Source of the DNA: an uncultured Lachnospiraceae bacterium | Lineage (GTDB): Bacteria; Bacillota; Clostridia; Lachnospirales; Lachnospiraceae | Assembly (NCBI GenBank): GCA_947625755.1 | Contig: CANQPJ010000002.1 | Span: 1-64,000, forward strand | Length of the DNA: 64,000 nucleotides | Direction: 5' to 3' | In this document: positions 3,001-52,339 of the stretch, one piece after another | How positions within the stretch are numbered: position 1 is the stretch's first letter | Layout of the letters: every line of letters starts with the position of its first letter | Notes under the pieces: model-generated | Database searches by the model: none | What the model saw: only the letters and a program-made list of their open reading frames with translations | Told to the model about the DNA's origin: nothing | Position numbers and translations under genes: made by a program

Positions 3001-4520
3001 ATTTCTGCGTTCAGTGAATGATACGGCGTGATGGACGCCTGTGCGGTATTCACCAGTTTTTCCGATGCGGTTGTCTGGTTCTTCCAGAGAAATTTAAAGC
3101 TGATTCGCAGGATATAGGTGTTGTTATAAAATCCGTCCTGATTTAAGGATTCTTCTTTTGCCGTTGCCGTTACTGTTCCGTTTTCTTCCTTGATGACAAA
3201 TTTATCCGTAACATCTGTCCGGTTCAAATCAATCACATTGGCTGATACATACTCGGCTTTTGCATTTTCATTTTCCGGGAGCGTGTCGGTGATGCTGAAA
3301 GTCTTGTAGTAATGTCTGGAGGCATATTCCGTATTTAGAGGTGGAACATACTGCATGATTGCAAAGGTATTTGTTGCCGTCCCCTCATTGCCGATGCTGC
3401 TTACATAGGCATCCGTAATATCATACGCATATGTTAAGGGATGTGCATTTGTCATTTTTTCTAATCCTTTTGTCGGTTTTGGCACATCATAACTCCCGAT
3501 TGGCGTTGCGTCATAAAAATACCAGCCGTAAGCGATATTTTTTTCATCTTCCTCCGGCGTGGCGTATGTATAACAGGTGCCGCCTGATACATATTGGGAT
3601 GTGATTGTGTTTACGGCGCGGTCAAAAATATCGCATTTCTGCTTATTATGCTCGATAAGTCCGTCCCAGCCGGCGCCGGTCGGCAACGCTGCCCTTTTTC
3701 CTGCTTCCGTATAGTTGTAATTGTCGTAATAAAAAATATAACGCTGACTAAATGAGGATACATTATCCAGCTCAAAACGGAGGGATCCGCTAAGCCGGTC
3801 ATTACAGACGCTTTTTCCGTCTCCGTACATATAGTGCCAGTCACCTGATTTAACATAATTAACATTACAGTTGTAAACATCATCTGCCTGTTTATCGTTA
3901 TAGTAGCACGCAAGGGACTGGATACTCCCATCATTCAGCTTCATGCCGCACGTCTCATTGCCTTCTACATCACCTATGGTCGCGGACATGTTGACTTTGA
4001 TTGGATTCCCGTCGTGCAATAGTTCCCATTTCGCTTCATAGGACATGTTGGCGTAATAGTGCGATATTTGTCCGGAAATTCTGCTGTAATACGGGTGGAT
4101 AATCGGTGTTATGGATGTCCCCTTGTGGGAGATATTGTTCCAGTAATATGTAATCTTTACGTCAATTTTTTTGCCTTCATATAATCCCACGTTTGTGATA
4201 TATGCACCTACCTTTCCGGAGAGCGTGCTGTTTGGATGAATGGCTGGTGACGTTACAAATTCGTTCTCCAAAAGAATAATTTTTCCTTGATAAGCTTTTT
4301 CCGTTCCGGAGTCGCTTTGCTGCCAGAACCGGATTTTCGTTTCGCTGCCTGCGCGTAGACTAAATGCATATTTCGCATCATGTACTGTGTCTTCATTTTG
4401 ATGTTTAATTCCCGCTGTATCTTTTGCAAGTACGTCCGCAGCGTTTACGCTTACGGAACTGTTTACAAACGATAATATAAGTAATAATAATGTCGTTACA
4501 GATAATAAAAATCTTTTCAT
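93..4520 (-). CDS. Cell-surface adhesin with nine Cna-B type repeats and C-terminal SPKTG sortase motif
   Basis: ORF 1475 aa; N-terminal signal peptide; nine repeats of form (L/I)xVKKxWxDxxDADGxRPExVxVxLxADG...YTLSxxNxWxxxxxxLxxxxxGxxIxYTWxExxVPxGY; C-terminus SPKTG + hydrophobic TM + KNKRGN tail. Confidence 0.9.
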   Translation of the reverse strand: MKRFLLSVTTLLLLILSFVNSSVSVNAADVLAKDTAGIKHQNEDTVHDAKYAFSLRAGSETKIRFWQQSDSGTEKAYQGKIILLENEFVTSPAIHPNSTLSGKVGAYITNVGLYEGKKIDVKITYYWNNISHKGTSITPIIHPYYSRISGQISHYYANMSYEAKWELLHDGNPIKVNMSATIGDVEGNETCGMKLNDGSIQSLACYYNDKQADDVYNCNVNYVKSGDWHYMYGDGKSVCNDRLSGSLRFELDNVSSFSQRYIFYYDNYNYTEAGKRAALPTGAGWDGLIEHNKQKCDIFDRAVNTITSQYVSGGTCYTYATPEEDEKNIAYGWYFYDATPIGSYDVPKPTKGLEKMTNAHPLTYAYDITDAYVSSIGNEGTATNTFAIMQYVPPLNTEYASRHYYKTFSITDTLPENENAKAEYVSANVIDLNRTDVTDKFVIKEENGTVTATAKEESLNQDGFYNNTYILRISFKFLWKNQTTASEKLVNTAQASITPYHSLNAEIRDSNDVTVKAVRKKLIIKKQWNDADDADALRPENITATLLADYYVLGTPVVKDITSGIVVLSEANDWTGFVWIDDPDYTSEVSYSNGIYEYHWKELSIPDGYVSSSATENNITTITNTHIPEMTSLTLCKVWDDENNRDLKRPKSIQVDVLDGENVVRTVTVNETDEVAANEWKVTVSDLIKNKNGNPIHYTIREHNVGNGYTSSASYEKIEDEWKITNTREPEKIKLTVKKVWNDGNDADGLQPEAVKVTLKANGETVNTYTLSKENDWAVTTEELNKYDSGDEIDYTWEEKAVTGYISAQETVNNVTTITNTHEPDRISIQIKKNWNDDNDADGIRTEKVNVSLFADKEKVNTYTITKENGWQLTVDHLLKNKKGKPIDYTWQEESIAGYTPVFDYNAYDVVLTNIHQADRIHLKVRQEWEDYDNADGIRPESVTAVLYADGKPAKDQDGNPITVNLADKDGWNDTVLDVLKNKDGKPIEYSFVQEPVPDGYTTGYSMDSDTFVITSVHEPERVNLTVEKQWNDHDDADGLRPERINIVLFADKEKADTHTLSSANEWKVTVRNLIKNKKGNPIDYTWQEESIPEGYSVSYKAEGDKTVITNTHKHDLTNATLKKIFDDADNADGIRPESIDFRLNADGEEIGTYTLSEKNNWQVAIDNLDMNKGSKKISYTWEEINVPEGYTSEKNIKGSLTEITNTHSQETVDFHVRLQFEDDNNRDGIRPDEVTVGLLADGEEIGTYTLSEANDSVDVKGLPKNKNGKPIQYDFVQKGNPDKYSITYDSKNRTVEIMDKHIPEKVTATVKKIWKDHDNSSGLRPKNIQAALFINGVKSSQTVTLSEENNWEAAIPDLYRYENGIEVVYTFGEVNVPDGYNAKTELTGLSTTITNTLQEKETEESTPESTTKAPETTTPVTTVKQTPGNKSMISPKTGYDFDFDNDLSLPIGIILGVIALLLWLLLMGKNKRGN

Positions 4521-9927: not shown

Positions 9928-10068
9928 TGGATTTCATGGTCACCTTTGTTCTTTTTCGTGGATTGCGTGGTCACCTTTCGTGGATTTCATGGTCACTTTC
10001 ACTGGATTTTATGGTCACCTTCATCGGATTTCATAGTCACTCCTGTTGGATTTTGCAGTCACCTTTGA
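9928..10068. repeat. Six 22-bp iterons (TGGATTTCATGGTCACCTTTNN)
   Basis: Copies at 9928, 9959, 9981, 10003, 10025, 10047; the last five in exact 22-bp register, directly upstream of rep. Confidence 0.9.
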
Positions 10069-35944: not shown

Positions 35945-37318
35945 ATGAAATTGTGGGGAGGTCGTTTTACCAAGGAAGAAAACCAGTTAGTTCATAATTT
36001 TAATGAATCTCTTTCTTTTGACCAAAAATTTTATGCACAGGATATTCGTGGCAGTATTGCACATGTAAAGATGCTCGGAAAACAAAATATTATTACTAAA
36101 GATGAAATGAATCAGATTATTGATGGATTAAACGGTATTAAGACGGATATTGATACCGGAAAATTAAGGTTTTCGAAAGAAAGTGAAGATATTCATAGTT
36201 TTGTGGAAGCAAATCTTATTGAACGGATTGGAGATGCCGGTAAAAAACTTCACACCGGACGCAGCCGTAACGACCAGGTCGCTCTTGATATGAAACTTTA
36301 TACAAGAGATGAAGTTGTTGAAATAAACACTTTATTAAAAACACTGCTTTCTTCTCTTTTAAAAGTAATGGAAAAAAATACGGAAACTTATATGCCGGGC
36401 TTTACTCATTTACAAAAAGCCCAGCCAATTACATTGGCACACCATTTTGGAGCATATTTTGAAATGTTTAAACGTGACAGAGACAGACTGGATGATATTT
36501 ATGAGCGGATGAATTATTGTCCGTTAGGCTCCGGTGCATTGGCTGGTACAACTTATCCTCTTGACAGAGAATACACAGCCTCTCTTTTGGACTTTAAAGG
36601 CGTAACACTCAACAGTATGGATTCTGTATCAGACAGAGATTACGTTATTGAACTGTTAAGTTGTTTATCTACAATTATGATGCATTTTAGCCGGTTTTGT
36701 GAAGAGATATGTATTTGGAATTCAAACGAATACCGGTTTGTAAATATTGATGATTCATACAGCACAGGCTCCAGTATTATGCCGCAAAAAAAGAATCCTG
36801 ATATTGCTGAATTAATTCGTGGAAAGACAGGTCGTGTATATGGCGCCCTTACTTCCATTCTTACAACAATGAAAGGAATTCCACTGGCATACAACAAAGA
36901 TATGCAGGAAGATAAAGAATTGACTTTTGATGCCATAGATACTGTCAAGGGATGTATTGTTTTGTTTACAGGTATGATAGATACAATGACCTTTAACAAA
37001 GATATTATGGAAGCAAGTACAAAACATGGTTTTACAAATGCAACAGATGCCGCAGATTATCTTGTAAACCACGGGGTACCATTTAGAGATGCACATGGAA
37101 TTGTCGGAGAATTAGTTCTCTTTTGCGAGGAAAAGGGAATTGCTTTAGATGACATGACATTAGAAGAATATAATGCTATCAGTCCTGTATTTGAAAATGA
37201 TATTTACGAAGCAATCAGTCTTGAAACATGCATTAACAAACGTATGACCATTGGTGCTCCGAGTCCGGAAGCAATGAACAATACGATTAAAATATATAGG
37301 GAATATCTGAATAAATAG
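35945..37318 (+). CDS. argH: Argininosuccinate lyase
   Basis: MKLWGGRFTKEENQLV; HTGRSRNDQVALD; GSSIMPQKKNPDIAELIRGKTGRV. Confidence 0.96.
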   Translation: MKLWGGRFTKEENQLVHNFNESLSFDQKFYAQDIRGSIAHVKMLGKQNIITKDEMNQIIDGLNGIKTDIDTGKLRFSKESEDIHSFVEANLIERIGDAGKKLHTGRSRNDQVALDMKLYTRDEVVEINTLLKTLLSSLLKVMEKNTETYMPGFTHLQKAQPITLAHHFGAYFEMFKRDRDRLDDIYERMNYCPLGSGALAGTTYPLDREYTASLLDFKGVTLNSMDSVSDRDYVIELLSCLSTIMMHFSRFCEEICIWNSNEYRFVNIDDSYSTGSSIMPQKKNPDIAELIRGKTGRVYGALTSILTTMKGIPLAYNKDMQEDKELTFDAIDTVKGCIVLFTGMIDTMTFNKDIMEASTKHGFTNATDAADYLVNHGVPFRDAHGIVGELVLFCEEKGIALDDMTLEEYNAISPVFENDIYEAISLETCINKRMTIGAPSPEAMNNTIKIYREYLNK

Positions 37319-37392: not shown

Positions 37393-37539
37393 TATAATAT
37401 ATTTGGAATGTTAAAAAAGCCTCTGGTTAGCAGAACCTGCATCCGCATTAGCGACGCAGGTTCTGTCTTTCTATATTTATTGGATAATTATTGATTTTAG
37501 TGTAAGTTCTAAAATTACACTTTTCATTTTCTGCCATAT

Positions 37540-37889
37540 TTATAATTTACATATATTAATATTTTATAATTTTATATAGATATGTAATATATTTTCACTT
37601 GCTATGAATTTCTCAATAATTTACATATATATTTGCCTTGTTTTGTAAAAAATATATGTAATTCATTCTCACCAGTTATAGATTTCTCAAAAATTTACAT
37701 ATATATTTGGATTGTTTTGTAAAAAATATATGTAATTTATTCTCACCAGTTATGGATTTCTCAAAAATTTACATATATTTTTAGCTTGTTTTGCATAAAA
37801 TATATGTAATTTATTCTCACCCATCATGAATTTTCCATAGATTTTACACGTATATCTGGCAGCTTGACAAAAACTTTTTTACAGTTCCC
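37540..37889. repeat. 74-bp-period repeat element, copy A
   Basis: TTACAT/TTACAC anchors at 37547, 37621, 37695, 37769 and 37844. Confidence 0.85.
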
Positions 37890-37890
37890 T

Positions 37891-39171
37891 CTAAATTAAA
37901 TCTTTAAAATGAAACTGCCTCTTACCTTTTGCATAGTCATCAACAATATTTCCACTGCCATATAACTTGTATTTGTAACTCACAAGCCCTTCTAGTCCTA
38001 CCGGACCTCTGGCATGGATTTTACTTGTGCTGATTCCCACTTCGGCGCCAAATCCATATCGGTATCCGTCCGCAAACCTTGTAGAGCAATTCTGGTATAC
38101 ACCTGCCGAATCTACATATTTCATAAAATATTCCGCTGTATCGTCATTTTCTGTAATAATACAGTCTGTATGATGGGAACCAAAATAATTGATATGCTCT
38201 ATTGCTTCATCAACAGAATTTACTTCTTTTGCAGATAGAATCAGGTCCAAATATTCCGTATAATTGTCTTTTTCACTGCTCTCACTGCATCCTGTTAAAT
38301 GGACAATCTGCTCACTGCCACGCAGGGTAACGTTATTTTCTTTCAAAGCACTATATAATTTAGGAATAAATGTATCTAAAACCTCCTGATGTATCAAAAG
38401 TGTTTCCACTGCATTACATGCTGAAGCATACTGTGTCTTTGCGTCAATGATAATTGGAACTGCTTTGTCCAAATCTGCCTCTTTGTCCACATAGATATGA
38501 CAGATTCCATCTGCGTGTCCCATCACAGGAATTTTTGTATTATCCATGATATATTGAACAAAAGAATTGGAACCTCTTGGAATCAATAAATCCACATACG
38601 CATTACAGGTGAGAAGTTCTGATATTTCCGAACGTGCCTCCAACTGCAGCATACAGTTTTCAGGCATGCCTGACTTTCGTACAGCATCATAAATAATCTG
38701 AAACAATACTCTGTTACTGTTTATAGTCTCGCTTCCGCCTTTTAAAATTACACAATTTCCGCTTTTTATACAGAGGGAGGAAATCTGTATCAATGCATCA
38801 GGTCTTGCCTCGAATATAACGCCAATGACACCGATAGGACAAGTCTCACGCACCAATATCATTCCTTCATCTAACTGCCTTTTCATCTGTTTTTGAAATA
38901 AAGGATCCTTTAGTCCAATTAAATCATTAATTCCTGCAATTACATCTTTTAACTTTGTTTCATCAAATTTCAGTCTCTTTATAATGGGTGCAGCAACACC
39001 GTCTTTTACTGCCTGCTCCAAATCTTCTTTGTTTGCAGCAAATATTTCATTTTTATGCTCTTCTAATGCTTTTACTATCGCCATTAATGCCTTATTTCTC
39101 TGTTCTTCGCTGCTTCCCGCCATTATTGGTGAAGCCAGTTTGACTAATTCTGCCTGTTCTTTAATACTCAT
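37891..39171 (-). CDS. proA: Gamma-glutamyl phosphate reductase
   Basis: VRETCPIGVIGVIFEARPDALIQISSLCIKSGN; VETLLIH; TSKIHARGPVGLEGL. Confidence 0.95.
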   Translation of the reverse strand: MSIKEQAELVKLASPIMAGSSEEQRNKALMAIVKALEEHKNEIFAANKEDLEQAVKDGVAAPIIKRLKFDETKLKDVIAGINDLIGLKDPLFQKQMKRQLDEGMILVRETCPIGVIGVIFEARPDALIQISSLCIKSGNCVILKGGSETINSNRVLFQIIYDAVRKSGMPENCMLQLEARSEISELLTCNAYVDLLIPRGSNSFVQYIMDNTKIPVMGHADGICHIYVDKEADLDKAVPIIIDAKTQYASACNAVETLLIHQEVLDTFIPKLYSALKENNVTLRGSEQIVHLTGCSESSEKDNYTEYLDLILSAKEVNSVDEAIEHINYFGSHHTDCIITENDDTAEYFMKYVDSAGVYQNCSTRFADGYRYGFGAEVGISTSKIHARGPVGLEGLVSYKYKLYGSGNIVDDYAKGKRQFHFKDLI

Positions 39172-39207
39172 TATTTTTTCTCCTCTCATAGCATTATAAA
39201 ATATTTT

Positions 39208-49123: not shown

Positions 49124-49320
49124 AATTTATCTCCTGATTATGGTATATATTCTATTTGATTTCATTTAGTATTGCAAGTTCTTTCATACACTTTCATCTT
49201 TCTAAAAAACACCCGGGTTGATAGAATCACTATGAGAAGGACGGCTGTCTGAATAACTTGCACTTATTCTTTCCAATTGATATACTGATAAAGATAAAGA
49301 AGATACATAAGGAGGTTATT

Positions 49321-50430
49321 ATGTCTGGTTCAACTTATGGCAATATTTTTAAAATCACAACTTGGGGAGAATCCCACGGAAAAGCAGTGGGGGTTGTTGT
49401 CGATGGATGCCCTGCCGGAATAAATTTGTCTGAAAACGACATTCAAAAATTTTTAGATAGAAGAAAACCAGGGCAGTCAAAATACACAACGCAAAGAAAT
49501 GAAGACGATAAGGTCGAGCTTTTATCCGGAATATTTGAAGGTAAAACAACCGGTTCCCCTATTTCAATGATTGTGCATAACAAAGACCACCATTCTGCCG
49601 ATTATAGCCAGATTGCATCCTATTACAGACCCGGACACGCTGATTATACTTTTGATGAAAAATACGGTTTCAGAGATTATCGGGGTGGTGGACGTTCCTC
49701 TGGTCGTGAAACGATTGGACGCGTTGCGGGCGGAGCCATTGCCTCCAAAATATTAGAGCAGTTAAATATTTCTATACTTACCTATTCCAAAGCTATTGGA
49801 AATATAGAAATTGATTACAATAATTTTAATCCATCAGAAATAAATAATAATTCTCTATATATGCCGGACCACAGTGCTGCTGTCAGGGCTGGAGAATTAT
49901 TAAAAGAAAAAATGGCTGAAAAAGATTCTGTTGGAGGTATCATCGAATGTCTTATTGATGGTATGCCTGCCGGTATTGGCGAACCAGTATTTGAAAAACT
50001 GGATGCCAATCTTGCAAAAGCGGTTATGTCGATTGGTGCTGTTAAAGGTATTGAAATCGGAGACGGTTTTGCCGTATCTCATTCTACCGGTTCCGACAAT
50101 AATGACGGTTTCCGAAGTGAGAATGGAAAAATTTTTAAAACAGCCAACCATGCAGGTGGCATTTTGGGTGGTATCAGTGATGGCTCGCAAATTGTACTCC
50201 GTGCCGCTGTAAAACCTACTCCTTCTATTGCCAAAACACAGTCTACAGTGACAAAATCCGGTGAGAACATTGATGTCAATATCAAAGGCCGCCATGATCC
50301 GATTATTGTTCCAAGAGCGGTTGTCGTCGTGGAATCAATGACTGCCATTACACTAGTTGATATGTTATTCAATGCCATGACCTCCCGAATGGATAAAATT
50401 ATTGAGTTTTGGAAAAATACAAATATTTAG
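49321..50430 (+). CDS. aroC: Chorismate synthase
   Basis: TTWGESHGKAVGVVVDGCPAG; RDYRGGGRSSGRETIGRVAGGAIA. Confidence 0.96.
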   Translation: MSGSTYGNIFKITTWGESHGKAVGVVVDGCPAGINLSENDIQKFLDRRKPGQSKYTTQRNEDDKVELLSGIFEGKTTGSPISMIVHNKDHHSADYSQIASYYRPGHADYTFDEKYGFRDYRGGGRSSGRETIGRVAGGAIASKILEQLNISILTYSKAIGNIEIDYNNFNPSEINNNSLYMPDHSAAVRAGELLKEKMAEKDSVGGIIECLIDGMPAGIGEPVFEKLDANLAKAVMSIGAVKGIEIGDGFAVSHSTGSDNNDGFRSENGKIFKTANHAGGILGGISDGSQIVLRAAVKPTPSIAKTQSTVTKSGENIDVNIKGRHDPIIVPRAVVVVESMTAITLVDMLFNAMTSRMDKIIEFWKNTNI

Positions 50431-50527: not shown

Positions 50528-50932
50528 GGAACTGTAAAAAGTCTTTTTACATGGAAGTTTTTGTCAAGCTGCCAAGTATATATGTAAAATTTTCGGGCAT
50601 TCATGATGCAGGAGAATGAATTACATATATTTTTTGCCAAACCAACCCATTATACATGTAAAATCTTTGGATATCCATGATGAGGGAGAATATATTACAT
50701 ATACTTTTTACCAAGCCAGCCAGGCATATATGTAAAATTTTCGAACATTCATGATGAGGGAGAATATATTACATATACTTTTTTGTCAAGCCAACCGAGT
50801 ATATATGTAAAATCTTGAGAAATCCATGCCAAGTGAAAATATATTACATATCTATATATAATTATAAAAAACTAATATATGTAAATTATAAATATGATTT
50901 ATGGCAGGGCTGCTTTATCTTTTTACAGTCCC
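50528..50932. repeat. 74-bp-period repeat element, copy B, with terminal inverted repeats
   Basis: ATGTAAA anchors at 50582, 50656, 50730, 50805 and 50879; ends GGAACTGTAAAAAG and CTTTTTACAGTCCC. Confidence 0.85.
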
Positions 50933-50998: not shown

Positions 50999-52339
50999 CT
51001 ACTTTACACGAATCTTTACTTTATAACTCTGTTTCGTTGTTCTGAGAGTTACTGTGATTGTAGCTCTTCCTTTCCTTAATGCTTTTATTTTCCCTTTTGA
51101 TGTAACCTTTACCACTTTCTTATTGGATGAAGCAAACTTGAGAATATTTGTCTTAAGGATACCACGCTTCTTAAATTTTGTATTTTTGTTATAAATGTAC
51201 GCTTTCGTATTTAACTTCTGGGTAGTTCCTCTTTTTAGAACAACTTTTCTCTTTTTCGCCTTAATCGTTTTAATATATTCTGCTCTGTAATCCTTTGTTT
51301 TATGATTGGCTGTTAACGTTGCTTTTGCAATATAAGTATTATATTTCTTGCCGTTATTTTTGTATTGCTTTTTCAGATAGGATGGCATAATCAACTTTGT
51401 TTTGCTGCGATTGAATGAATCTTTATGCATTTTAATAACACTGTCCGGTATTTTTACTTTTTTGATTTTTGTATTTTTTGAAAAAGCTAAAGCACTTATA
51501 ACCTGAAGCGAATTTGATAACTTTACAGAGGATAAATTACAATTCCGAAAAGCAGCATTTCCAATACTAATTACACTATTTGGTATAGCGACTTTTTCTA
51601 AAGAAGTGCATCCCTCAAAAGCTGAATTATATATTCTTTCCAACTGCTTGCTCCAGTTTATTTTTTTCAGTTTCTTACATTGCGAAAAACTAAATTCTCC
51701 AATAATTTTAATATTTTGAGGAAGTGTAATTTCTTCCAGATTTGAATTTCTATATCCGTAGTCTTCAACCATTGTATATTTTTCATTGGCAGAAAGTGTT
51801 AAATTTTTTAAATAAGAATTTTCGCTTATGCCATAGCTTTTTGTCACTGTAGATGGCTCGATATAGCTTGTTGTTTTTTTACCTCTTGGATAATTGAAAA
51901 GTGTAAGTTGTTTTTTATCAAATAACACACCGTCTTTCACTGAAAAATACTGATTTTCAGAAACCACATCATAGCTTTCTATTTCTATTTTATTATCTTC
52001 ACCGGAAATATTGGATAATTCCAGTCTGCTATTTACTGTTTTGATATTCTTACCAAGTGTCACTTTTTTAAATGACTTCATTTTGCCTTCCAGCGAGGCT
52101 AGAGATACGACATTATATCCACCCAAAGTTTCAGGAATACTGATTTCGCTTTCATTACCTAAATATCCACAAATTTCAACTTCACCAGCCGTACCGGAAT
52201 GATTAATTATTCTGTATTGGAAATTTCCCTCTGTTAATATTTGTTCAGCGGCACGTGCTGTACAATCTGCCTGTATAAATAGTGATATAATTAAGATAAA
52301 CGCCATTAATTTTTTAAAATACTTATAAGTTTTTTTCAT
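50999..52339 (-). CDS. Secreted BspA-like leucine-rich repeat protein
   Basis: Signal peptide; LRR_5 repeats (IGEFSFSQCKKLKKINW, IYNSAFEGCTSLEKVAIPNSVISIGNAAFRNC); C-terminal Big_2-like region. Confidence 0.85.
   Translation of the reverse strand: MKKTYKYFKKLMAFILIISLFIQADCTARAAEQILTEGNFQYRIINHSGTAGEVEICGYLGNESEISIPETLGGYNVVSLASLEGKMKSFKKVTLGKNIKTVNSRLELSNISGEDNKIEIESYDVVSENQYFSVKDGVLFDKKQLTLFNYPRGKKTTSYIEPSTVTKSYGISENSYLKNLTLSANEKYTMVEDYGYRNSNLEEITLPQNIKIIGEFSFSQCKKLKKINWSKQLERIYNSAFEGCTSLEKVAIPNSVISIGNAAFRNCNLSSVKLSNSLQVISALAFSKNTKIKKVKIPDSVIKMHKDSFNRSKTKLIMPSYLKKQYKNNGKKYNTYIAKATLTANHKTKDYRAEYIKTIKAKKRKVVLKRGTTQKLNTKAYIYNKNTKFKKRGILKTNILKFASSNKKVVKVTSKGKIKALRKGRATITVTLRTTKQSYKVKIRVK

What the first reader, a model, noticed from the sequence alone, without database searches (positions are those of the whole stretch)
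50528..50932. Copy B has terminal inverted repeats, MITE-like
Copy B is bounded by GGAACTGTAAAAAG (50528-50541) and CTTTTTACAGTCCC (50919-50932), giving a 405-bp element with internal 74-bp repeats. Copy A keeps the ACTTTTTTACAGTTCCC end but its other end is diverged. Internally tandem, terminally inverted non-coding elements in convergent or 3' intergenic positions suggest a non-autonomous transposon or a structural chromosomal element.
Basis: partly seen in the sequence, partly recalled or inferred. Interest (0 to 1): 0.6.

Follow-up and report, generated by a model that had tools for sequence, protein, structure and literature searches.

The report
Terminator-replacing mini-transposon with repeat array
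The repeat after the aroC gene is one of about 42 copies of a small, gene-less jumping element that appears to be moved by a known type of transposase, lands on the stop signals at gene ends, and carries an unexplained, very regular array of 74-base repeats.

Summary
Copy B (50528-50932) has 14-bp terminal inverted repeats (13/14) around four 74-bp units. It belongs to a family of about 42 arrays (2-11 units), plus one zero-unit copy, dispersed through this 2.25-Mb Lachnospiraceae draft genome (51 contigs). Diverged relatives occur in some congeners.
The mini-transposon reading is supported by three tests. (1) The ends match an IS1182-family insertion sequence: its ends lie at four contig ends of this genome, its transposase gene was read in a congener, and its right end is homologous to the element's right end. 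(2) Two loci have empty sites in relatives with both flanks homologous. (3) At both, the element occupies the place of the relative's terminator stem-loop, between A- and T-rich flanks, without target duplication. This is the published "stem-loop-replacing" insertion of IS1272, an IS1182-family member. It also explains why elements follow stop codons (median 27 nt).
In 35 of 40 copies the gene at the right end points into the element. Most right ends carry a terminator-like hairpin, often preserved by paired base changes; copy B lacks it.
The function of the 74-bp array is unexplained: two inverted blocks at fixed phase, no RNA covariation. Known kind (MITE; compare BOX, BrickBuilt), new variant.

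The parts
50528..50932 (+). Copy B: complete 405-bp element (the variant without a terminal hairpin)
   Evidence: TIRs and four 74-bp units; one of about 42 arrays genome-wide
50528..50541 (+). left terminal inverted repeat GGAACTGTAAAAAG
   Evidence: 13/14 complementary to the right end; same motif at 19 left ends of the family at 79% match or better
50556..50851 (+). array of four 74-bp units, each with inverted blocks TATATGTAA and TTACATATA
   Evidence: genome-wide 146 of 173 unit spacings are exactly 74
50852..50918 (+). right tail with a last half-site (ATATATGTAAATTAT) and the type-2 end (GATTTATGGCAGGG...)
   Evidence: shared with other right ends of the family
50919..50932 (+). right terminal inverted repeat CTTTTTACAGTCCC
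37405..37889 (-). Copy A: element with four units and a terminal hairpin, between argininosuccinate lyase (35945-37318 +) and an aldehyde dehydrogenase-family gene (37891-39189 -)
37431..37465 (.). terminal hairpin of copy A (CAGAACCTGC...GCAGGTTCTG, slightly decayed)
   Evidence: homologous to the right-end hairpin of the IS1182-family IS
37580..37871 (-). array of four 74-bp units of copy A
49258..50430 (+). chorismate synthase gene aroC, which points into the left end of copy B
   Evidence: Pfam PF01264, E 7e-140
50999..52339 (-). BspA-type leucine-rich-repeat gene with Big_2 domain, which points into the right end of copy B; absent at this place in G014
   Evidence: Pfam; synteny

Best explanation
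Copy B belongs to a family of non-autonomous mobile elements (MITEs) moved in trans by an IS1182-family transposase. Shown from sequence: shared terminal inverted repeats, a right end homologous to that of an IS1182-family IS, dispersed copies, and two empty sites. Inferred by analogy with published IS1272/TnSha1: the transposase inserts the element in place of a transcription-terminator stem-loop, leaving the A-tract and T-tract of the terminator at its borders and making no target duplication. That would be why elements sit directly after stop codons. Many copies bring a replacement terminator-like hairpin at the right end. Orientation with that end against the upstream gene's stop codon is favoured, either by selection or by insertion; this is not resolved. 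The internal 74-bp array expands and contracts (0-11 units) as in BOX elements. It is best read as a set of phased, inverted DNA-binding half-sites rather than an RNA structure; that part is a guess.
For: Family: about 42 arrays in the own genome and a zero-unit 109-bp form. Partner: contig ends C1 (both), C12 and C25 carry GGGGCTGTAAAAAAAGTC plus an inward hairpin. In congener L180 the same left end is followed by a transposase ORF matching NF033551 IS1182 (E 5e-70, though 237 bits is below the curated cut-off of 270) and PF05598/PF01609/PF13751 above cut-off. The other end type reads into the transposase C-terminus. Element right end versus IS right end without the TIR: 0 of 1000 shuffles reach the score in five of eight copies tested and 2-3 of 1000 in two; copy B, which lacks the hairpin, shows none. 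Insertion: A/T footprint at 46 ends, p about 7e-12 against sequence further out. Empty sites with both flanks homologous and a terminator stem-loop at the insertion place: L031/G014 and L061/G002, predicted folds -14.5 and -13.9 kcal/mol. Placement: right-hand gene points in, 35 of 40, p 1.4e-6; left-hand gene 20 of 39; median 27.5 nt from right end to stop codon. Literature: PMC5678879 and PMC4923244 for IS1272/TnSha1.
Against: Strict empty sites come from other species, not strains. Copy B itself has no strict empty site. Copy A's argininosuccinate lyase keeps its own hairpin, so not every insertion next to a gene removed that gene's terminator. Many copies have only one recognisable end.
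Confidence: 0.85

Rival explanations
1. A structural or regulatory chromosomal element (BIME/REP-like) kept at gene 3' ends for the host's benefit, in which the mobile ends are only a remnant. Tandem half-sites phased at 74 bp (about seven helical turns) would bind a nucleoid or regulatory protein.
For: 146 of 173 spacings are exactly 74 although units differ by 27% between arrays; blocks TATATGTAAA and ATTACATAT are nearly invariant. Placement at gene 3' ends with an orientation bias. One locus is occupied in three species (L049, L073, L077). In G014 the array lies in a different repeat without IS1182 ends.
Against: The ends, A/T footprint and empty sites are fully explained by transposition. 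Most congeners searched lack the array. No binding protein is known.
Confidence: 0.2
2. A repeated non-coding RNA gene: the array is transcribed and works as a string of hairpins.
For: Each unit holds an inverted repeat; a promoter-like TTGTCA-18-TAAAAT occurs in both window copies; the terminal hairpin shows paired changes.
Against: No covariation in the unit stem: observed pairing equals that expected from the column composition. Folding z-scores are only -1.9 and -0.9. No Rfam match. Promoter-like matches are about as frequent as in shuffled sequence.
Confidence: 0.07
3. Ordinary tandem-repeat expansion at unrelated sites, with terminal inverted repeats arising by chance.
For: The unit number varies from 0 to 11.
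Against: Shared end sequences at dozens of loci, homology to an IS end, and empty sites.
Confidence: 0.01

Closest known systems
BrickBuilt MITE of Porphyromonas gingivalis (PMC4596501)
   Same: Non-autonomous element with short terminal inverted repeats, leader and tail modules and an internal tandem repeat of variable number; always intergenic; restricted host range.
   Different: Repeat unit 23 nt against 74 nt; here a partner IS with homologous ends and stem-loop-replacing empty sites were found; sequence relation to BrickBuilt was not tested.
BOX elements of Streptococcus pneumoniae (PMC3049150)
   Same: Modular A-(B)n-C build with variable tandem B modules, dispersed and intergenic.
   Different: Here the ends match an IS1182-family IS and insertion replaces terminator stem-loops; unit 74 bp. 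Sequence relation to BOX was not tested.
IS1182 family, in particular IS1272 and TnSha1 (PMC5678879, PMC4923244)
   Same: Short terminal inverted repeats, insertion into terminator stem-loops with loss of the loop, no target duplication, location just downstream of genes.
   Different: The element here has no transposase and carries a 74-bp tandem array; its ends match an IS1182-family member found in this genus.
BIME/REP arrays of enterobacteria (from general knowledge, not tested here)
   Same: Tandem inverted units at 3' ends and between convergent genes.
   Different: RAYT association was not tested; terminal inverted repeats and DDE-transposase-type ends here; different unit.

Membership tests
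MITE (non-autonomous DNA transposon) | Short element without transposase, bounded by terminal inverted repeats | tested here: met
   391-943 bp with both ends recognisable in ten copies; no gene inside
MITE (non-autonomous DNA transposon) | Ends match an autonomous transposon in the same or a related genome | tested here: met
   IS1182-family ends at four contig ends of G000 and a transposase in G013
MITE (non-autonomous DNA transposon) | Multiple dispersed copies and empty sites | tested here: met
   about 42 arrays; two empty sites
MITE (non-autonomous DNA transposon) | Target-site duplication | tested here: not met
   No direct repeats at the borders; flanks are A-tract and T-tract. Expected for IS1182/IS1272-type insertion, which makes none (PMC5678879, PMC4923244), so it is not a defining feature for a MITE of this family
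IS1182-type stem-loop-replacing insertion | Target is a stem-loop that is lost on insertion | tested here: met
   L031/G014 and L061/G002 empty sites; only two sites could be tested strictly
IS1182-type stem-loop-replacing insertion | Transposase acts on these ends | not testable with these tools
   needs a transposition assay
BOX element | boxA, boxB and boxC sequences | not tested
   No alignment to BOX sequences was made; only the modular build is alike
REP/BIME | REP palindromes and an associated RAYT transposase | not tested
   Y1 transposase search was not run
Structured RNA family | Match to a known RNA family, or covarying stems | tested here: not met
   No Rfam match in the window except one tRNA; no covariation in the unit

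The most novel reading that the evidence does not exclude
The 74-bp array is a module with its own function, a phased set of inverted binding half-sites for an unknown protein. It has been captured by at least two unrelated mobile elements in this genus (an IS1182-type MITE and a foldback repeat), which place it systematically at the 3' ends of operons in a fixed orientation.
Probability: 0.2. Interest if true: 0.75.

Novelty: new variant of a known kind. Interest (0 to 1): 0.45.

Why it matters
It suggests that the stem-loop-replacing insertion known from staphylococcal IS1272 also acts on a non-autonomous family in a Lachnospiraceae genus, where it has swapped terminators at many genes for element-borne sequence. 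It gives a natural set for asking how replacing terminators changes transcription, and why a strictly spaced array is kept inside a mini-transposon.

Tried and rejected
Exact-pattern scan of genome contigs for the right tail found nothing outside the own genome, so the exact sequence is narrow in range. Plasmid and phage collections: no match. Rfam: nothing but a tRNA. Covariation in the 74-bp unit: none. RNA folding of the array: unremarkable. Promoter and terminator scans of the two window copies: promoter-like matches close to shuffled numbers, no terminator by that scan's rules. Right-hand genes share no evident common function by eye, so linkage to a gene class was dropped. Empty sites for copies A and B: the relatives' neighbours differ, so no strict test. 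L055 against G002: the relative carries a foldback-like repeat at that convergent site instead of a plain terminator. The IS body could not be found in G000.

Full report
Observation. Such a pair at such a spacing occurs once in the window.

Family. A search of the own genome (2.25 Mb, 51 contigs) gave 71 matches. After taking the surroundings a profile of the unit found 41 arrays of 2-11 units; one more was found later (L093), 42 in all. A 109-bp form without a full unit lies at C22:14772-14880. The complete build is: left end GGGACTGTAAAAAAG(TTTTTGTCAAGCTGCCA), n units, an AT-rich tail, usually a 13-19-bp hairpin (CAGAACCTGCATCCGC-TAAT-GCGGATGCAGGTTCTG) 8-14 nt from the right end, and CTTTTTTACAGTCCC. 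A second form, with copy B among it, lacks the hairpin. The hairpin occurs almost only with arrays. In several copies both arms have changed together (L031, L039, L049, L058, L059, L062, L066), and L045 has a wholly different stem.

Partner transposon. The end motif also lies 59-73 nt from contig ends in G000 (C1 both ends, C12, C25) and near contig ends in G004, G007, G010 and G015, as expected for a multi-copy element that broke the assembly. There are two kinds. One is followed by a hairpin and then, in G013 (L180), by an ORF of at least 479 aa with IS1182 and DDE transposase domains; the NCBIfam match is strong (E 5e-70) but below that model's curated cut-off. The other kind reads in reverse into the transposase C-terminus (my reading of the translation). 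The element's right end aligns with the IS right end beyond the inverted repeat; shuffles do not reach the score in five of eight copies tested. Copy B, without the hairpin, shows no similarity beyond the repeat. The left ends share little more than the inverted repeat.

Insertion mode. The four bases outside the ends are A-rich on the left and T-rich on the right (mean 2.9 of 4 against 1.6 further out, p about 7e-12), with no target duplication. Two loci could be compared with both flanks homologous. L031 against G014: 83 bp separate the conserved flanks in G014 and hold the stem-loop AAGGGGGCACTTATCTGCCCCCCTT; G000 has the element there. L061 against G002: G002 has AAAAAGAGTCCCAAAAAGGAACTCTTTTT; G000 has AAAAA, element, TCTTTT. 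Both loops fold at about -14 kcal/mol. This is the 'stem-loop replacing' insertion published for IS1272, a member of the IS1182 family, which also targets terminators and makes no duplication (PMC5678879, PMC4923244). In L032 and L033 the relative likewise has a hairpin directly after the orthologous stop codon, though only one flank is comparable. In L036 the same convergent gene pair in G014 holds a degenerate array in the opposite orientation, which suggests independent insertion or inversion.

Placement. In element orientation the gene on the right points into the element in 35 of 40 cases (36 counting a tRNA next to L034), the gene on the left in 20 of 39. The right end lies a median 27.5 nt from the stop codon. 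Genes were called by a simple longest-ORF rule, so single cases may be wrong. The bias toward the hairpin end could come from selection for a working terminator or from the insertion reaction; I cannot separate these.

The array. Of 173 unit spacings 146 are exactly 74 and 23 are 73 or 75, although units of different arrays are only 73% identical. Two blocks, TATATGTAAA and ATTACATAT, are nearly invariant and mutually inverted. Pairing in this stem equals what the columns alone predict, so there is no sign of compensatory change, and folding is unremarkable. That favours constraint on DNA sequence and spacing over RNA. In G006 and G012 the unit is diverged but keeps the period; in G014 it lies in a ~1.1-kb repeat with nested inverted repeats and no IS1182 ends; in G008 an element with the same ends has another tandem unit, ACCACATA...TATGTGGT. 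What uses the array is unknown.

Range. Of the congeners searched, five (G002, G006, G012, G013, G014) have clear relatives; hits outside the genus are weak and short. Named relatives by aroC are Lachnospiraceae, Eubacterium and Butyrivibrio assemblies. No plasmid or phage match.

Conclusion. A terminator-replacing MITE family of IS1182 type with a BOX-like or BrickBuilt-like tandem core: known kind, new variant. Mobilisation by the IS1182 transposase and terminator function of the hairpin are inferred from sequence, not measured.

Noticed in passing
L083-L088, L092 (G014): Multi-copy ~1.1-kb repeat with nested inverted repeats at both ends (CACCGACTTCATCTTC...) that carries a 2-unit 74-bp array in the middle and lacks IS1182 ends.
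   Followed up: partly
L226 (G002), after the ortholog of the L055 right-hand gene: A foldback-like repeat of the same kind sits at the convergent site where G000 has the 74-bp element.
   Followed up: no
L174 (G008), 1501-1940: Element with the same terminal motif but a different tandem unit (ACCACATA...TATGTGGT).
   Followed up: no
L192 and L198 (G008): Roughly 90-bp minimal elements: terminal repeat, hairpin, terminal repeat.
   Followed up: no
L074 (G012) and L078 (G006): Arrays upstream of the same gene in two species with no recognisable terminal repeats or hairpin.
   Followed up: no
L077 (G006), about 3550-4010: Array interrupted by roughly 460 bp of other sequence.
   Followed up: no
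L101 and L102 (G000:C7, about 11 kb apart): Identical 550-bp stretches of a leucine-rich-repeat-type coding region, a recent duplication.
   Followed up: no
window 9954-10065: Tandem repeats of 22 and 44 bp in an intergenic stretch.
   Followed up: no
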